DNA of 64,000 nucleotides from Sulfuricurvum sp. Its GTDB lineage: Bacteria > Campylobacterota > Campylobacteria > Campylobacterales > Sulfurimonadaceae. Each line of letters begins with the position of its first letter. Position 1 is the stretch's first letter. Shown piece by piece: positions 1 through 8,182 of this stretch. The stretch is from positions 1 through 64,000 of the forward strand of contig JAUYRN010000027.1 of assembly GCA_030696775.1 (NCBI GenBank). Direction: 5' to 3'. A program made the position numbers and the translations under genes. The notes under the pieces were generated by a model that did not search any database, was not told the origin of the DNA, and was given only the letters and a program-made list of their open reading frames with translations.

Positions 1-1553
1 TTTGCATCAACATCGGTATCGTTTGCGATGACATCGATGATGACGGCGGCATCTTCGTTTGTCGTTGCCGTGTCATTTTTGACGGTTGTCACATCATTGA
101 CGGCATCTACGGTGACATCAAAAGTACTAGTGCTACCAGTATTAACGGTGTAGGTAGCTTGAGGGACCGTTCCGTTATAGTTGGCAGCTGGGATAAAGAT
201 GTAGTCTCCGTTGACTGCAAGGCTAAGTGTTCCCACTCCGGTGATGGTCGCCGTTTGCCCTGCGGTGTAGACGGTGGAGTCTCCGGCAATTTTGAAGCTC
301 GCAATGCTGAGGATGCTATCGACATCACTGTCGTTGGTAAGGACGTTTCCGCTCACTACGGTATCTTCGGTAACAGTTTTATTATCCGGTGCCATCACGG
401 AGGCATCATCAACATTATTCTCACGCAATGTAATCGTCGCGTCGGTGGCATTGTTCGCCGCGTCTTTGACGGTGATGACGTAGTCGCCGCTGTTTGGAGC
501 GTTCTCGAAGTCGTTCGCCGTAGAAGCCGCGCCCGCCGCGGTCAGGGTGATGACACCGCTGTTATCAATTTGATAGAACCCGTCCGCGGAGATGATGGTT
601 CCCGTCGCTTTGAAGCTATAGCCGATTACGGCGACGTTGTCGCTTGCCACGACGGTCGCGATGGTGGCACCCGCTGCGGTGTTTTCCGCATAGTCGAAGG
701 TTTGGTTCGCGATCACTGGTGCTGCCGTATCGACCGTAACACTACGTACTGCCATCGTATCAATGCTGTTACCTGCTGTATCGTATGAGGTCACTTTAAC
801 ATCGATATTGTTATCTGCCACAAGATCGGCAGTGAGAACATTGACGCTGTATGTGCCGCCCGTTTGAACTGTGGTAGTGTAGTTATGTCCGTTGACGGTG
901 AGAGTGACGGTGTCACCAATTTTGATATCGCCACCCGTTGCCATTCCGCTGATCGCCGTGTTAGTTTGACCTGCTTCGGTCGCATTAATAATGTCATCGC
1001 CCGCAATGGTACTGATTGTAAGAGTTCCCGCCGTAGCAGATGTATCAATAACTACTGGTCGAAAAGTTTCAATTGTCTCTTTAGGCTGATCTAAATTTAT
1101 TGCAGTAAGATCCAATAACGTCGTAACATCTTTAACCGTCCCCGTTCGATCAGAGAATACAACCGAAGTTGAGTTTTCGCTCATAACAACTTCATTACCG
1201 GCAGCTGTTTCATTATCATTATTTTTATTATCTATTAATGCAGGATCAACAATATTAAGAGCACTTTTGAGAGAATCAGTATGAATAACAGCATCATCAC
1301 TTAAAAAAATACTTTTGAGTAAAGAGGTATCAAAATTTAGAGCACTATTTCCAGCAAGTGTAATATCAGCACTACCTGCATTAGCCATATCAATAATAAT
1401 TTTTGCAGTTTTTACATTTGTTTGGTCCCCATAGACCAATTCACCCTCAGAAATAACATCACCAGCTTTTAACTGACGAATATTTCCGTGTATATCTTTG
1501 ACAAAAAAAGTTCCATTCTCTACTGCTTTTACATATCCAATAATTCGTGCCAT
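1..1553 (-). CDS. N-terminal part of a giant LapA-like, type I-secreted repeat adhesin (retention module plus Ig/cadherin/VCBS-like repeats); runs off the left edge
   Basis: Reverse strand from ATG at 1553 is open to base 1 and reads MARIIGYVKAVENGTFFVKDIHGNIRQLKAGDVISEGELVYGDQTN..., then repeats such as TNDSDVDSILSIASFKIAGDSTVYTAGQTATITGVGTLSLAVNGDYIFIPAANYNGT. Absent from the ORF track, probably because it has no stop in the window. Lies directly downstream of a type I secretion operon. Confidence 0.88.
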   Translation of the reverse strand, partial: MARIIGYVKAVENGTFFVKDIHGNIRQLKAGDVISEGELVYGDQTNVKTAKIIIDMANAGSADITLAGNSALNFDTSLLKSIFLSDDAVIHTDSLKSALNIVDPALIDNKNNDNETAAGNEVVMSENSTSVVFSDRTGTVKDVTTLLDLTAINLDQPKETIETFRPVVIDTSATAGTLTISTIAGDDIINATEAGQTNTAISGMATGGDIKIGDTVTLTVNGHNYTTTVQTGGTYSVNVLTADLVADNNIDVKVTSYDTAGNSIDTMAVRSVTVDTAAPVIANQTFDYAENTAAGATIATVVASDNVAVIGYSFKATGTIISADGFYQIDNSGVITLTAAGAASTANDFENAPNSGDYVITVKDAANNATDATITLRENNVDDASVMAPDNKTVTEDTVVSGNVLTNDSDVDSILSIASFKIAGDSTVYTAGQTATITGVGTLSLAVNGDYIFIPAANYNGTVPQATYTVNTGSTSTFDVTVDAVNDVTTVKNDTATTNEDAAVIIDVIANDTDVDA

Positions 1554-1673: not shown

Positions 1674-2267
1674 TTATGAATGAAGAAGGAGAGAAAGGGC
1701 TAAACGGTCTTTTACGGCGAGTTTTTCATAGATAGCTGAACAATGAGCTTTGATCGTGCGAACGGTAATATCTAACTTTTCAGAGACCTCATTATGTGTC
1801 ATTCCTTGAGCCAGCAACAAGGCAACTTCTCTTTCTCTAAGCGATAATTTATTCAGCTCTTTATGCTCATCAATGGCTTTCGGTTGAGATTCAGCTAAGC
1901 GACTGATAAGGGCTGCAATAAAATCAGGATATAGCCATACTTTTCCTTCTTCAATAGCTTGATAAGCTGATTGAAGGTGTGATTCATGCATCAAAGCATT
2001 ACCGTACCCCATAGCACCAGCATTGAGTACATCTTGGGCCTTCGTAAAATCAGGTACCATCGATAAAACCATAATATGATTTAATCCAGAGCGCAAAAAA
2101 TGATGTAATTCAGTATCGGACAGAACCAGATCATGCACAAAAACAATACCCTCATTCGGCTGATTGAGTTCATTCATTGTTTTGAGCTTTATAGGGTGAT
2201 ATTTTTTTAATGCACCATACCAATGTCCTAGAACAGAATCCACTGAACTTATAAGATAAAGTTTCAT
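1674..2267 (-). CDS. LuxR/NarL-type response regulator with atypical receiver domain
   Basis: C-terminal LuxR HTH (LSLREREVALLLAQGMTHNEVSEKLDITVRTIKAHCSAIYEKL); N-terminal receiver-like region without an obvious acidic pair. Confidence 0.8.
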   Translation of the reverse strand: MKLYLISSVDSVLGHWYGALKKYHPIKLKTMNELNQPNEGIVFVHDLVLSDTELHHFLRSGLNHIMVLSMVPDFTKAQDVLNAGAMGYGNALMHESHLQSAYQAIEEGKVWLYPDFIAALISRLAESQPKAIDEHKELNKLSLREREVALLLAQGMTHNEVSEKLDITVRTIKAHCSAIYEKLAVKDRLALSLLLHS

Positions 2268-3604
2268 TAACGCTCCGAAAAAGTATATTGTTTTGCACGA
2301 AGCAAAGGTTTGAGGATGTATTCCAAAACCGTTTTTTGACCGGTAATGACATCAACATTTACCATCATTCCCGGAATGATTTTCAGTGGTTTTTCTTTTG
2401 TACCAAGATATTTTTTATTCGTTTGAATTCTAACAATATAATAAACATTTTGCTTATCATCCGTTTCCGTATCAGGACTAATGGTTGATACAATGCCATT
2501 TAATGAACCATACGTTGAAAAATCATAGGCCGTTACTTTAACAACAGCTTTTTGTCCAGGATAAATAAATGCAATATCAGCAGGTTTTATTTTTGCCTCA
2601 ATAAGTAACCCACCTTCTGTTGGGACAATTTCAATTAAATTATCTCCAGGTTTAATAACTCCGCCAACTGTATTGACATACAATTTTTGGACAATACCGT
2701 TAATGGGTGATTTAATTGTCGTACGGGTTACTTGATCGGCCAATTCCGAACTTTCAGCACCCACACGCTGATACTCTGTTATGGCTTGGTTAAGATCCAA
2801 ACGTGCTTTTGTTACGTATTCTGATCGTGCTTCACGCATCTTGCTCGTAATCTCATTGATAGCTGAGCGGAGTCTTGGAATAGATGAGCGTACTGCATTG
2901 TAACGCTCACTTACATCACTGTATTCACGTTGTAATTTCAAAAATTCTACACGAGGTTTAATCCCTTGAGCTACCATTGGTTCAGAAATAGCAACCTCTT
3001 CACGAATAAGATCAAGAGCATGTTTTTGCTGACTAATATGGCCTTGAGCTTCAAGCAGTTCACTTTGCTTTTGTGCATATTGATCTTGCAATGAAGCTAT
3101 CTGCGACTCCAAATGCTCTTTATTGGATAAATATAAACTTCTTTCTTCCATAATCTTCATCGGAATTGCTTTCATATCCGCATCAGATGGAGAAAAAGAT
3201 CCACCAGTGGATTCAGCACGCAAACGTATAATTCGTGCACGTAATTCACCTGATTTATACTGAGAACTTTCATACGTAGAAGAGGATTTTATATTATCAA
3301 TTTTAAGCAAAACTTCCTCAGTTTTGACCTTTTGTCCCTCTTTAACCATAATTTCACTCAGAATTCCACCCTCCAAGTGCTGAATCATTTGATTTTCACC
3401 ACCGGGGATAACTTTACCATCTCCTCTTACAAGCTCATCAATAGGTGCTAAAGTTGCCCACAAGAAAAAAGCGAATACCGTTACCATCCAAAAAATAAAC
3501 ACAAAACGTAATTTATGCGGCGTATCCTCTAAAACAGCTGCAGAAATACTTCGCATAAACTGATAATCATTGGCATCAAAATTAAACTTTTTTTTAGGAC
3601 TCAT
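2267..3604 (-). CDS. HlyD-family type I secretion periplasmic adaptor subunit (LapC-like)
   Basis: Single N-terminal TM, long coiled coil, C-terminal RTTIKSPINGIVQKLYVNTVGGVIKPGDNLIEIVP; overlaps the upstream ABC transporter by 4 bp. Confidence 0.9.
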   Translation of the reverse strand: MSPKKKFNFDANDYQFMRSISAAVLEDTPHKLRFVFIFWMVTVFAFFLWATLAPIDELVRGDGKVIPGGENQMIQHLEGGILSEIMVKEGQKVKTEEVLLKIDNIKSSSTYESSQYKSGELRARIIRLRAESTGGSFSPSDADMKAIPMKIMEERSLYLSNKEHLESQIASLQDQYAQKQSELLEAQGHISQQKHALDLIREEVAISEPMVAQGIKPRVEFLKLQREYSDVSERYNAVRSSIPRLRSAINEITSKMREARSEYVTKARLDLNQAITEYQRVGAESSELADQVTRTTIKSPINGIVQKLYVNTVGGVIKPGDNLIEIVPTEGGLLIEAKIKPADIAFIYPGQKAVVKVTAYDFSTYGSLNGIVSTISPDTETDDKQNVYYIVRIQTNKKYLGTKEKPLKIIPGMMVNVDVITGQKTVLEYILKPLLRAKQYTFSER

Positions 3605-5781
3605 ACTTGACCTCCCGAAAGCTTCGCGATGACACTGTCACGAGGTCCATCCAAATAAATTTCACCTTCATTCATTACAATGATTCTATCAACCAAAGGT
3701 AAAACCGTATTTTTTTGCGTAATAATGATGGCAGTTTTATCCACTAAATACGTTTGTAAATTAGCAATCAACCGATTCTCGCTAAGCTGATCCATAGCGT
3801 TTGTCGGCTCATCCATGATGACGATTGGTGATTCTAACAATAAGGCTCGAGCAATCCCAATACTTTGACGTTGACCGCCTGAAAGCCCCATACCGCGCTC
3901 ACCGATAGGCATTTCATACCCCAAAGGATGACGACGTATAAACTCATCAGAGCCTGAGATAACGGATGCACGAATCATCTGTTCATCGGATACTCGTGTA
4001 TTTCTGTACGCAATGTTGTCTTTTGCATTACCCTTAAAAAGATTAATATCTTGGGAAACGTAACTAATGTTTTTACGCAAATCTGCAGGATCAATTTGAT
4101 TGATATCAATACCATCCAATAAAATCGAACCGCTCTGAGGCTGATATAAATTAAGCAACAACTTGGCTATCGTACTTTTACCGGAACCGATACGACCAAT
4201 AATCGCTATTTTTTCTCCCGCTTTAATCGAAAATGAGAGATTTTTCAAAGCACTAAACTGGGAATCCTCATATCCGAAATTGACTCCTTGAAACTCAATT
4301 TCACCTTTCAATTGTGAACGGGCAACAAATTTTTTACCGTGAGGTCGCTCCATCGGTTGTGAAATAATCGTATCGATAACGTCATAAGCGGATTTTGCAT
4401 CTGAGTAATTTGAAATCAGGGAAGCCACTTGTCCCATTGGGGCAACCGTCCGACCAGCCAAAGTCATAATAGCGATTAACCCACCCATACTCAACTCATG
4501 TTCACCAATCATATAAACTCCAACTATAACGGTTACAACCGTCGTTAATTGTGTGAGATAGCCAGTAATCGTTGAGATTGATGTTGAGATAAGACGTGAT
4601 TTTAAACTTTTTTGGGCAATTTCCCCAGTGGCTTCTTCCCATTGCCATTGCATCTGCCCCATTGTCCCCAAGGTTTTCAACGTTTCGATGTTTTGTAACG
4701 CTTCAATAAGAATGGAACTTTTGGCCGCAGATGCTTTATGGCTTTGTTCAATACTTTCTCGCAAGGGATGCCGCATAAAGAGAGCATACGCTGCAATAAG
4801 AAGCATGATTGTGATCGGAACGACGACAACCCAACCACCAATATATCCAATGACGATTAAAAATAAAATAGCAAAAGGAAAATCTACTAACGCCGTGAGT
4901 GTCGCATTAGTCAAAAACGAACGTATCGAATCAAAGTCTTTCAGATTACTGGCAAAGGAGCCAACGGATTTGGGATGAGATGACATTTTCAGATCCAAAA
5001 CTTTTTCAAAAATAATCGATGACATAATGACATCACTTTTTTTACCTGCACTCTCCAACAGCATCGCCCGAGTAAATTTTAAAAAAGTATCAAGTAAATA
5101 AATTATCAACACACCTACAGCAAATACCCACAGCGTTTCGGTAGCATTATTAGGAATAACACGGTCATAAACACTCATTGTAAACATCGGAGTTGCCAAA
5201 ACAAATAAATTGACAAGTACCGTAGCATAAATTACATCACGGTAAATATTTTTTGAAAGCTTTAAGGTATCCCAAAACCAATGTTTATGCTTAACATCAA
5301 GTGTCAAAGAGTCATTTTCATCATACACAAACGGTCGCTTGATCAAAAAACCATACCCTGCATATTCTTTTTCTAAAACTTCAATAGGGACAATTTCTTC
5401 TACTGCTTCTTCAGCGGGAAGTATAACTTTACATGTTTTTAAATCCGAGGAAAATGAGTCCAATATACATGCACTATTATTTTCCAAAAGTAATATCATT
5501 GGTAATTGCAAAGGAGAAATGTCACGTAAATGACGATGTACTAATGTACTTTTTAGCCCGGCACGACTTGCTGCGCGAGCAAAAAGCCCTTTAGATGACT
5601 TTAAATTAAAAAGCTGAAGAGCTCCCCCAAAAGGGGAAACAGGAAGTCCGGCCATAAGGACTTCAGCACTGTAAGGCTTATGATAAATATGGGTAAATAA
5701 AACCAAACATTGCAATAGAGGGTCAACACCAAAAGCTGCTCCTTCTGGATCACTTATGCTGGATTGCTCGTTCTCATTCAT
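3601..5781 (-). CDS. Type I secretion system permease/ATPase with N-terminal C39-like domain (LapB/HlyB-like)
   Basis: Walker A GRIGSGKST, signature LSGGQRQSIGIARAL, Walker B IVIMDEPT; the N-terminal C39-like domain appears to lack the catalytic Cys. Confidence 0.92.
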   Translation of the reverse strand: MNENEQSSISDPEGAAFGVDPLLQCLVLFTHIYHKPYSAEVLMAGLPVSPFGGALQLFNLKSSKGLFARAASRAGLKSTLVHRHLRDISPLQLPMILLLENNSACILDSFSSDLKTCKVILPAEEAVEEIVPIEVLEKEYAGYGFLIKRPFVYDENDSLTLDVKHKHWFWDTLKLSKNIYRDVIYATVLVNLFVLATPMFTMSVYDRVIPNNATETLWVFAVGVLIIYLLDTFLKFTRAMLLESAGKKSDVIMSSIIFEKVLDLKMSSHPKSVGSFASNLKDFDSIRSFLTNATLTALVDFPFAILFLIVIGYIGGWVVVVPITIMLLIAAYALFMRHPLRESIEQSHKASAAKSSILIEALQNIETLKTLGTMGQMQWQWEEATGEIAQKSLKSRLISTSISTITGYLTQLTTVVTVIVGVYMIGEHELSMGGLIAIMTLAGRTVAPMGQVASLISNYSDAKSAYDVIDTIISQPMERPHGKKFVARSQLKGEIEFQGVNFGYEDSQFSALKNLSFSIKAGEKIAIIGRIGSGKSTIAKLLLNLYQPQSGSILLDGIDINQIDPADLRKNISYVSQDINLFKGNAKDNIAYRNTRVSDEQMIRASVISGSDEFIRRHPLGYEMPIGERGMGLSGGQRQSIGIARALLLESPIVIMDEPTNAMDQLSENRLIANLQTYLVDKTAIIITQKNTVLPLVDRIIVMNEGEIYLDGPRDSVIAKLSGGQV

Positions 5782-5832: not shown

Positions 5833-7242
5833 TTACTTTTCAACTTCTCTTTTGTATTTATCTATTTTTCTATCTGCGAAAATAAGGTTTTCGATGCGAT
5901 CATTATTATCCTGTCGATTATCTAATGATTTCAATCCAACGCGTGCGATCAAGGCACTCTCTTGGGTTCCAAGAATCGATGGAACCATCGTTCCCATGGA
6001 ATCTAAAATTCGATAATGAGCAAGCATCAAATCATTTTCAGCACGAATTATTTGTGTTTGTGCAGAGACATGATCACTTTGAGCTGTAAGCAAATCCAGC
6101 AACGTACGGCGACCTAAGTCATACTCTTTTTGATACAGTTCTAATGTTCTTTTACTTGAAATCTCATAGCGCTTAAGATGAACTATTTGATCCGCTAAAT
6201 TTTTCTTAGCAGACCATGAAAGCGATCCTTGTTCGTCTAACTTACGTAGATTATCTCTTCTAGTCTCAGATTCCTGATTGATTTTACTCAAACTTTTATG
6301 GATTTGAGACTCATCTGCTCCACCACGATACAAATTATAATTAAGAGTCAGTCCAGCTTTAAAACGATCATCATTCCCCGGTATTCCACCAACGTTATTT
6401 GCCCAACTCTGCCGTGCAAAAGCATCAATACTAGGATAATATCCTTTTTGTGCAATCTGTTTTTGAGCTTGAGCTGCTTTAATATTGTAATCGTTGACTA
6501 AAATAGAAGGATTATGAAGCTGTGCATATTCCTTCATTTCTTCGATTGAATCCGGTAATTCTCCAGAAAAAGAGAGTCCTTGGACTTGTGAAGGAGAAAC
6601 TTTTTTACCATAAATACGTTCTAAATTAAAGAGTGCATCATCAAGATTATTCTGAGCAACAACAAAATTTGATTTAGCTAGAGAAAGAGAAGTATCAGCT
6701 TTTTCAACCTCTGAACGCGTTGTTAGACCCGCATTAAAAAGTTTTTCTACTTTGATCACAATATCATCATTGTATTTCACATTGGACTGCGCAACAAACA
6801 TGATATCGCGTGTTTTAAGTGCGTTGATATAAGCTGTCGTAAAGTTAAAAGCGACGTCATTGGCATTTTCGATATAATTGTATACTGCGGCTAAAATACG
6901 TGCTTTATTATAATCCGATTCGTGTGTTGTAGCAAAGCCATTAAAAAGATTTTGTGTCAGTTGTAATGAGTGCTCATAAGCATTTAGTGAAACACTATTA
7001 AAGCTTGTACTTGGTGAATTTGTTTTCTCACGACCAATGGTCGCTGTATAATCCAATGTTGGAAGATACTGCGCCTCAGTCGTTCGTAAATCTTCTAAAG
7101 TTGCACGATAATTGTGAAGGCGCTCTTGTACGATTGGATTGGTGCTAAGAACATCATCTACCCCCTCTTGTAAAGAAAGTGCATTTAATGCAGAAATTGC
7201 ACACATTGAAAGAGTTGTAATAATAGCCCATTTGTTTTTCAT
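5833..7242 (-). CDS. TolC-family outer membrane protein (type I secretion)
   Basis: Signal peptide and TolC-type repeats (ALNALSLQEGVDDVLSTNPIVQERLHNYRATLEDLRTTEAQYLPTLD; QLTQNLFNGF; LNYNLYRGG). Confidence 0.9.
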   Translation of the reverse strand: MKNKWAIITTLSMCAISALNALSLQEGVDDVLSTNPIVQERLHNYRATLEDLRTTEAQYLPTLDYTATIGREKTNSPSTSFNSVSLNAYEHSLQLTQNLFNGFATTHESDYNKARILAAVYNYIENANDVAFNFTTAYINALKTRDIMFVAQSNVKYNDDIVIKVEKLFNAGLTTRSEVEKADTSLSLAKSNFVVAQNNLDDALFNLERIYGKKVSPSQVQGLSFSGELPDSIEEMKEYAQLHNPSILVNDYNIKAAQAQKQIAQKGYYPSIDAFARQSWANNVGGIPGNDDRFKAGLTLNYNLYRGGADESQIHKSLSKINQESETRRDNLRKLDEQGSLSWSAKKNLADQIVHLKRYEISSKRTLELYQKEYDLGRRTLLDLLTAQSDHVSAQTQIIRAENDLMLAHYRILDSMGTMVPSILGTQESALIARVGLKSLDNRQDNNDRIENLIFADRKIDKYKREVEK

Positions 7243-7525
7243 TTATATAGCCTTTATATTATAAAGATTTACAAATCGTAAAACCACGTGCCGATTGTTG
7301 GTAAATCATGTTTTTTTATTATTTCATAGCAATTCTATATAAAAATAATAATTGAAATGTGACAATTTGTCAACAATTCATCACTCTAATTATAACTGCA
7401 AAATAAGTTTAACGTAAAAATCAATAAATATCATATTATTTAGATGATTTAACGTTATATTATAGATTCTTTTATTGAAAACTTGTAATAATAGCACTTA
7501 TCATAATCAAATATTAGGAATACCT

Positions 7526-8182
7526 ATGTCTATTCGTACTAATTCTAAGATTGCCTCATTTGTCTATCTTTTTACTGTTGGCTTGTCATTCTCAGGTTAT
7601 GCTGTTGATCAGCAATGCATAGTACGGCATGAAATATGTACAGAGCATTATAAGCAAACGACTTTTGCTCCAAGCTATCAAGAGATTATCAAAAAGCAAC
7701 CTATTGCGCAAGCAGCTCCAGTAGTTGCTCCTATCGCTGTAGTAGCTATTCCAATGCTTAGTGATGAGGACAATGATGGAGTTGAGAATACGTTAGATAA
7801 ATGTCCTCAAACTCCACAGGGATACAAAGTAGACTCGACAGGGTGTCTAAGAAATGTCACTCTTTACATCAATTTTCCTTTCGCATCTAATGTCCTTCCC
7901 GCTTCTTCCATAAAAGAGGTAGAGACATTAACAGCCTTCCTACAAGAAAGTCCTGCATCGATGGTGACAATTATCGGACATACTGATAATAACGGAATTG
8001 ATACGCGCAATCAGCCTCGTTCGGAAGCCAGAGCAAAGGCATTAGGAGATAAATTAATTTCAAATGGAATTGATATGAACCGAATTAAAACATCAGGTCA
8101 AGGGGCAAAAAATCCAATTGCTTCCAACGCAACTGATGCAGGACGTGCCCAAAATCGTCGCATAGAAGTTCAAATCAAATAA
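7526..8182 (+). CDS. OmpA-family outer membrane protein with thrombospondin type 3-like Ca-binding repeat
   Basis: DEDNDGVENTLDKCPQTPQGYKVDSTGC followed by an OmpA domain (VTIIGHTDNNGIDTRNQPRSEARAKALGDKL...GQGAKNPIASNATDAGRAQNRRIEV). The ORF track starts at 7475; the ATG at 7526 (MSIRTNSKIASF, signal-like) is more plausible. Confidence 0.88.
   Translation: MSIRTNSKIASFVYLFTVGLSFSGYAVDQQCIVRHEICTEHYKQTTFAPSYQEIIKKQPIAQAAPVVAPIAVVAIPMLSDEDNDGVENTLDKCPQTPQGYKVDSTGCLRNVTLYINFPFASNVLPASSIKEVETLTAFLQESPASMVTIIGHTDNNGIDTRNQPRSEARAKALGDKLISNGIDMNRIKTSGQGAKNPIASNATDAGRAQNRRIEVQIK

What the first reader, a model, noticed from the sequence alone, without database searches (positions are those of the whole stretch)
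1..1553. Giant LapA-like adhesin missing from the ORF track, with retention module and TAAG motif at residues 116-119
The minus strand is open from ATG 1553 to base 1. The N-terminus has the pattern expected of a LapA retention module (GYVKAVENGTFFVKDIHGNIRQLKAGDVISEGELVYGD). At 1197-1208 it encodes T-A-A-G (ACA GCT GCC GGT). In Pseudomonas LapA-type adhesins, the periplasmic protease LapG cuts at a TAAG/AAG-type site just after the retention module near residue 108. This suggests a c-di-GMP-gated, cell-surface-retained adhesin. Caveat: TAAG also occurs twice further on (ENTAAGATIA, LTAAGAAS), so position rather than the motif alone supports this. No LapD or LapG gene is in the window.
Basis: partly seen in the sequence, partly recalled or inferred. 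Interest (0 to 1): 0.72.

Follow-up and report, generated by a model that had tools for sequence, protein, structure and literature searches.

The report
Releasable surface adhesin in Sulfuricurvum
The window's edge cuts through the gene for a giant sticky surface protein of a sulfur-oxidising bacterium; the genes for the enzyme that should cut it loose and for the c-di-GMP sensor that should restrain that enzyme lie just past the break, so this is a normal, complete-looking version of a known attach-and-release switch in a group of bacteria where I found no published description of it.

Summary
Confirmed and strengthened. The minus strand is open from ATG 1553 to base 1, and base 1 is the end of the assembled contig (C35), so the gene is cut by the assembly. 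The N-terminus is a real retention domain: an AlphaFold model built on 51 relatives has one significant PDB match, 5ix9, the "cell surface anchoring domain" of a Marinomonas RTX adhesin (target TM-score 0.80). TAAG (116-119) lies in the unstructured linker after it. In about 55 Campylobacterota adhesin N-termini, 46 carry TAAG in this stretch and 7 a near variant. The two without it come from the only two sampled genomes of the phylum-wide set that have the domain but no LapG. The missing half was found: contig C2 begins inside a 1787-aa VWA/RTX C-terminus followed directly by lapG and lapD. Synteny in relatives (both flanks on one contig in G023) places C2 next to the window's left end. The locus is tolC-ABC-hlyD-luxR-lapA-lapG-lapD, a canonical Lap c-di-GMP adhesin-release operon in Sulfuricurvum. 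It is a new member of a known kind. The middle of lapA is unassembled, and cleavage and gating are inferred, not shown.

The parts
1..1553 (-). 5' part of a lapA-like adhesin gene (517 aa, cut by the contig end); retention module, cleavage linker, then Ig-like, cadherin-like and tandem-95 repeats
   Evidence: open to the contig end; Ig_like_ice at 160-252, Cadherin_4 at 372-453, Big_9 at 382-482
1257..1553 (-). Retention module: beta domain (residues about 1-75) plus helices 76-83 and 92-99
   Evidence: AlphaFold2 on A2, mean pLDDT about 90 over residues 1-50; only PDB match with E<0.001 is 5ix9 'Cell surface anchoring domain'; profile A1 also finds only 5ix9
1197..1208 (-). TAAG, predicted LapG site (scissile bond A117|A118, between bases 1203 and 1202)
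   Evidence: T116 is 94% and G119 88% conserved within an otherwise unconserved linker; model places it in the pLDDT<50 stretch 101-127
1674..2267 (-). LuxR-type regulator with atypical receiver-like N-terminus, in the operon between hlyD and lapA
   Evidence: GerE 51 bits; same position in 8 of 8 relatives' loci compared
2267..3604 (-). Type I secretion membrane fusion protein (LapC/HlyD role)
   Evidence: TIGR01843, 407 bits over a 209-bit cut-off
3601..5781 (-). Type I secretion ABC transporter of the LssB/LapB subfamily
   Evidence: TIGR03375, 874 bits over a 693-bit cut-off
5833..7242 (-). TolC-family outer-membrane channel (LapE role)
   Evidence: TIGR01844, 278 bits over a 225-bit cut-off
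7475..8182 (+). Divergent OmpA-family gene beside the operon; possible accessory, role inferred only
   Evidence: PF00691, 66 bits; a similar ORF at this position in relatives L068 and L071

Best explanation
This is the 5' part of the adhesin gene of a Lap-type, c-di-GMP-controlled adhesin retention and release operon in a Sulfuricurvum species: tolC - ABC - hlyD - luxR - lapA - lapG - lapD. The adhesin is exported C-terminus first by its own type I system. It stalls because its folded N-terminal module cannot pass the TolC-like pore, so it is held on the surface. At high c-di-GMP the degenerate GGDEF/EAL receptor LapD binds the nucleotide and sequesters the periplasmic protease LapG. When c-di-GMP falls, LapG is freed, cuts between A117 and A118 of TAAG, and the adhesin slips out and the cell detaches. 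Supported directly here by sequence comparison: the genes, their order, catalytic and receptor signatures, the fold of the module and conservation of the site. Inferred from characterised Lap systems: stalling, cleavage, the c-di-GMP gate and the adhesive role.
For: One LapG in the genome, starting 18 bases after the adhesin's stop codon and followed by lapD. LapG matches solved LapG structures 4fgo (E 7e-38) and 4u65 (E 2e-35), with DCED, AH and LD motifs aligned. LapD: LapD_MoxY_N 138 bits, NESDF in place of GGDEF, several EAL metal-ligand positions changed, GW loop kept. Adhesin C-terminus: VWA, PPC, RTX. Fold match to 5ix9 only. TAAG conserved through divergence to 25% identity. In 299 Campylobacterota genomes the module and LapG co-occur in 58 of 60 module-bearing genomes, Fisher p 3e-39 (not corrected for relatedness); the two exceptions lack the motif. 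Same gene order in eight relatives, with both flanks on one contig in G023. 58 GGDEF matches in the genome.
Against: No assembled contig joins C35 to C2; adjacency rests on synteny. The middle of the adhesin and its full length are unknown. NCBIfam's retention_LapA model scores only 17 bits against a cut-off of 50, and NCBIfam's LapG and LapD equivalog cut-offs are not reached, so these are distant members. The published 'DP' element before the site is present here but not conserved in relatives. No biochemical evidence.
Confidence: 0.9

Rival explanations
1. A T1SS-secreted repeat protein that is simply released, or permanently anchored; TAAG is a by-product of a Thr/Ala/Gly-rich repeat protein and lapG and lapD act on another substrate.
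For: Two further TAAG occur in the repeats at 292 and 338, and the protein is rich in T, A and G.
Against: The site at 116 is conserved across the phylum while the residues around it are not; the two at 292 and 338 are not shared by relatives. No other retention module was found in this genome: the best other hit to the LapA model is a FecR-like secreted protein. lapG follows lapA directly.
Confidence: 0.05
2. The operon is Lap-like but control differs: the in-operon LuxR regulator sets adhesin level transcriptionally and LapD answers another ligand, so c-di-GMP is not the main gate.
For: A LuxR gene at a fixed place between hlyD and lapA in all eight relatives compared. The EAL domain is degenerate, and binding was not tested.
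Against: LapD receptors in characterised systems are likewise degenerate (alignment to solved LapD 3pjw and 6pwj), and 58 GGDEF matches imply active c-di-GMP signalling. The two controls can coexist.
Confidence: 0.07

Closest known systems
Lap system of Pseudomonas fluorescens (LapA, LapG, LapD, LapEBC)
   Same: Retention module then TAAG; BTLCP protease; LapD with periplasmic LapD_MoxY_N domain and degenerate GGDEF/EAL; dedicated T1SS with LssB-type ABC; adhesin with VWA and RTX near its C-terminus
   Different: All genes in one cluster with a LuxR gene between T1SS and adhesin; module too divergent for the NCBIfam LapA model; 'DP' element before the site not conserved in the clade; adhesin shorter (at least 2304 aa here, 910-2920 aa in relatives)
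Dvh system of Desulfovibrio vulgaris (DvhA, DvhG, DvhD; PMC13090378)
   Same: Adhesin, protease and receptor in one operon in a non-gammaproteobacterium; beta-domain, helix, then [T/A/P]AAG
   Different: DvhG and DvhD differ from LapG and LapD in sequence and domain organisation, whereas the proteins here are of the standard LapG and LapD layout
Marinomonas primoryensis RTX adhesin anchoring domain (PDB 5ix9)
   Same: Only PDB match with E<0.001 by fold and the only one by profile, in register with its AAG segment
   Different: About 26% identity over 86 columns; gammaproteobacterial

Membership tests
Lap-type c-di-GMP-regulated adhesin system | Large T1SS adhesin with N-terminal retention domain | tested here: met
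   Foldseek to 5ix9, E 8e-4, prob 1.00, TMt 0.80
Lap-type c-di-GMP-regulated adhesin system | [T/A/P]AAG site in the linker after the retention domain | tested here: met
   TAAG 116-119, conserved in the phylum, in the disordered stretch of the model
Lap-type c-di-GMP-regulated adhesin system | Targeting helix and 'DP' before the site | tested here: inconclusive
   Helix 92-99 predicted and VDP at 102-104 here, but DP is not conserved in relatives
Lap-type c-di-GMP-regulated adhesin system | LapG (BTLCP, PF06035) with Cys/His/Asp triad | tested here: met
   53 bits over cut-off 27; triad aligned to 4fgo and 4u65
Lap-type c-di-GMP-regulated adhesin system | LapD with periplasmic domain and degenerate GGDEF/EAL | tested here: met
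   PF16448 138 bits; NESDF for GGDEF; several EAL metal ligands replaced
Lap-type c-di-GMP-regulated adhesin system | Dedicated T1SS (TolC, HlyD, LssB-type ABC) | tested here: met
   All three above NCBIfam cut-offs
Lap-type c-di-GMP-regulated adhesin system | C-terminal RTX repeats and VWA domain | tested here: met
   On contig C2; linkage to the window by synteny
Lap-type c-di-GMP-regulated adhesin system | LapG cleaves the site; LapD binds c-di-GMP and captures LapG | not testable with these tools
   Needs biochemistry
NCBIfam NF033682 retention_LapA | Score at or above the 50-bit cut-off | tested here: not met
   17.3 bits, aligned over model positions 4-122 of 145; so not claimed as a member of that model's subfamily

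The most novel reading that the evidence does not exclude
Campylobacterota carry a widespread, separately evolved branch of the Lap switch: LapG in 83 of 299 sampled genomes, and, in Sulfuricurvum and one related genus, a compact seven-gene operon with a built-in LuxR regulator. In this branch the motif is kept when LapG is present and lost when it is absent, and the protease reads the site without the conserved 'DP' element.
Probability: 0.4. Interest if true: 0.5.

Novelty: new member of a known kind. Interest (0 to 1): 0.36.

Why it matters
It turns a truncated, unlisted ORF into a near-complete operon with a precise, testable cleavage site. It extends the c-di-GMP adhesin switch to sulfur-oxidising Campylobacterota, where attachment to mineral or sulfur surfaces plausibly matters. 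The phylum-wide comparison also gives a natural control: the two genomes with a retention-like N-terminus but no LapG have no cleavage motif.

Tried and rejected
(1) A second retention module in the genome: the best NF033682 hit (C16, 27 bits) is a signal-peptide, FecR-like protein, not an adhesin. (2) Joining C35 and C2 by sequence overlap: they share only 21-mers (none of 31 or more), so the gap was not bridged and adjacency rests on synteny. (3) A first AlphaFold run on 20 close relatives gave pLDDT 57; the 51-sequence run gave 71 and was used. (4) My first tblastn of the adhesin's C-terminal end was out of frame and found nothing; redone in frame, it matches all relatives at low identity, up to 54% over the last 175 residues in G023. 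(5) The 261-aa plus-strand ORF at 3-788 is antisense to lapA and was dismissed as a by-product of the repeats. (6) Literature searches for Lap systems in Campylobacterota found none in the open-access library; two key surveys (Smith 2018, which is not held, and the 2020 Lap review, which I recall but did not look up) were not read, so absence is not established.

Full report
What is there. The minus strand from ATG 1553 to base 3 encodes 517 residues without a stop, with a TGAGGA ribosome-binding-like sequence just upstream. The window is bases 1-64000 of contig C35 of a 2.55-Mb, 38-contig genome. The gene therefore runs off the contig, which explains its absence from a list of closed ORFs. 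Named relatives of the N-terminus are almost all Sulfuricurvum, so the host is very probably a Sulfuricurvum species (Campylobacterota).

The N-terminus. A profile of 20 relatives finds one PDB chain at E<=10: 5ix9, the Marinomonas antifreeze-adhesin anchoring region, aligned in register down to its own AAG (E 0.1 alone is weak). AlphaFold2 on 51 relatives gives a mostly confident beta domain (residues 1-75, per-decade pLDDT 71-94), helices 76-83 and 92-99, and a disordered linker 101-127. Foldseek against the PDB then gives a single match with E<0.001, the same 5ix9, named 'Cell surface anchoring domain' (prob 1.00, TM-score 0.80 on the target). The general NCBIfam LapA model reaches only 17 of the 50 bits needed, so this is a divergent retention domain.

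The site. TAAG at 116-119 lies in that linker. Among 20 close relatives, E115, A117 and G119 are invariant and T116 and A118 nearly so, inside a linker of variable length and otherwise unconserved sequence. Over the wider phylum, T116 is 94% and G119 88% conserved at 25-97% identity to the query. Of 57 fetched N-termini (two fetched twice, so about 55 places), 47 have TAAG in residues 95-150, 8 a near variant (TASG, TATG, TALG, TTAG, TSAG or AAAG), and two none. Those two are from G041 and G281, of one family, and these are exactly the only genomes of the 60 module-bearing ones in the phylum-wide sample that have no LapG. Two further genomes of the near-relative sample, G004 and G007, have the module and the motif but no LapG hit; both assemblies are incomplete (91% and 81%) and their adhesins lie at contig ends, so absence there is not established. 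Strict TAAG in 25 of the first 30 compares with a shuffle mean of 0.36. The further TAAG at 292 and 338 lie in the repeat region beyond the linker and are not shared by relatives.

The missing half. The single LapG-family hit in the genome is on contig C2. C2 begins inside a 1787-aa ORF with VWA, PPC and RTX domains. It ends 18 bases before a 214-aa LapG, which is followed by a 653-aa LapD. LapG aligns to solved LapG structures with DCED, AH and LD motifs intact. LapD has the LapD_MoxY_N periplasmic domain, a GW loop aligned to the Legionella LapD-type domain 4u64, NESDF in place of GGDEF, and loss of several EAL metal ligands.

Linkage. No overlap joins C35 and C2. But in G023 one contig carries murF-HIT-tolC-ABC-hlyD-luxR-lapA-lapG-lapD-ygiQ-trpD. 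The window has murF to lapA at its left end and C2 has lapA to trpD at its left end. Seven more relatives show the tolC-to-lapD order. In the closest relative, G012, the assembly also breaks inside lapA. The adhesin is therefore at least 2304 residues plus an unknown middle; relatives range from 910 to 2920.

Secretion. Upstream are a TolC, an HlyD-type adaptor and an LssB-type ABC transporter, all above curated cut-offs, and a LuxR-type gene with a receiver-like N-terminus.

Mechanism. As set out for Lap systems in PMC13090378 and PMC6890996, LapD bound to c-di-GMP holds LapG; when c-di-GMP falls, LapG cuts the adhesin between retention domain and pore-spanning segment, and the adhesin is released. 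Every protein part needed is present here, and 58 GGDEF matches show that the genome is rich in c-di-GMP enzymes. The steps of stalling, cutting and gating are inferred.

Distribution. LapG-family proteins occur in 83 of 299 sampled Campylobacterota and this retention module in 60, together in 58 (Fisher p 3e-39, ignoring phylogeny). Within the 60 nearest relatives the overlap is 22 of 25 module-bearing genomes (p 4e-11). My open-access searches found no paper on Lap systems in this phylum; this is weak evidence, since key surveys were not available.

Verdict. The finding is right and more complete than its author could know. It is a new member of a known kind, with modest variations: one compact operon, an in-operon LuxR gene, a divergent module, and no conserved 'DP' element in the clade.

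Noticed in passing
window 1-1000: GC is 52% in the repeat part of lapA against 34-41% in the neighbouring 8 kb, perhaps from repeat composition or horizontal exchange of repeats.
   Followed up: no
window 1674-2267: LuxR-type regulator with an atypical receiver-like half, fixed in place between hlyD and lapA in eight relatives; its input is unknown.
   Followed up: partly
window 7475-8182: Divergent OmpA-family gene with thrombospondin type 3 repeat beside tolC, with a similar ORF at this place in L068 and L071; possible surface or peptidoglycan accessory of the operon.
   Followed up: partly
L065 and L066 (G012): N-terminus 97% identical to the window's, but the assembled C-terminal parts show no DNA similarity at E 1e-5 and about 26% protein identity: the exposed part of the adhesin may turn over quickly.
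   Followed up: partly
L071 (G030): Two adhesins and two tandem lapG genes ahead of one lapD; the shorter adhesin (910 aa) has TATG in place of TAAG and no GGxGxD repeats.
   Followed up: no
L055 (G041) and L116 (G281): Retention-like N-termini of about 45 residues followed by unrelated sequence, with no TAAG and no LapG in the genome: possibly permanently anchored or freely secreted proteins.
   Followed up: partly
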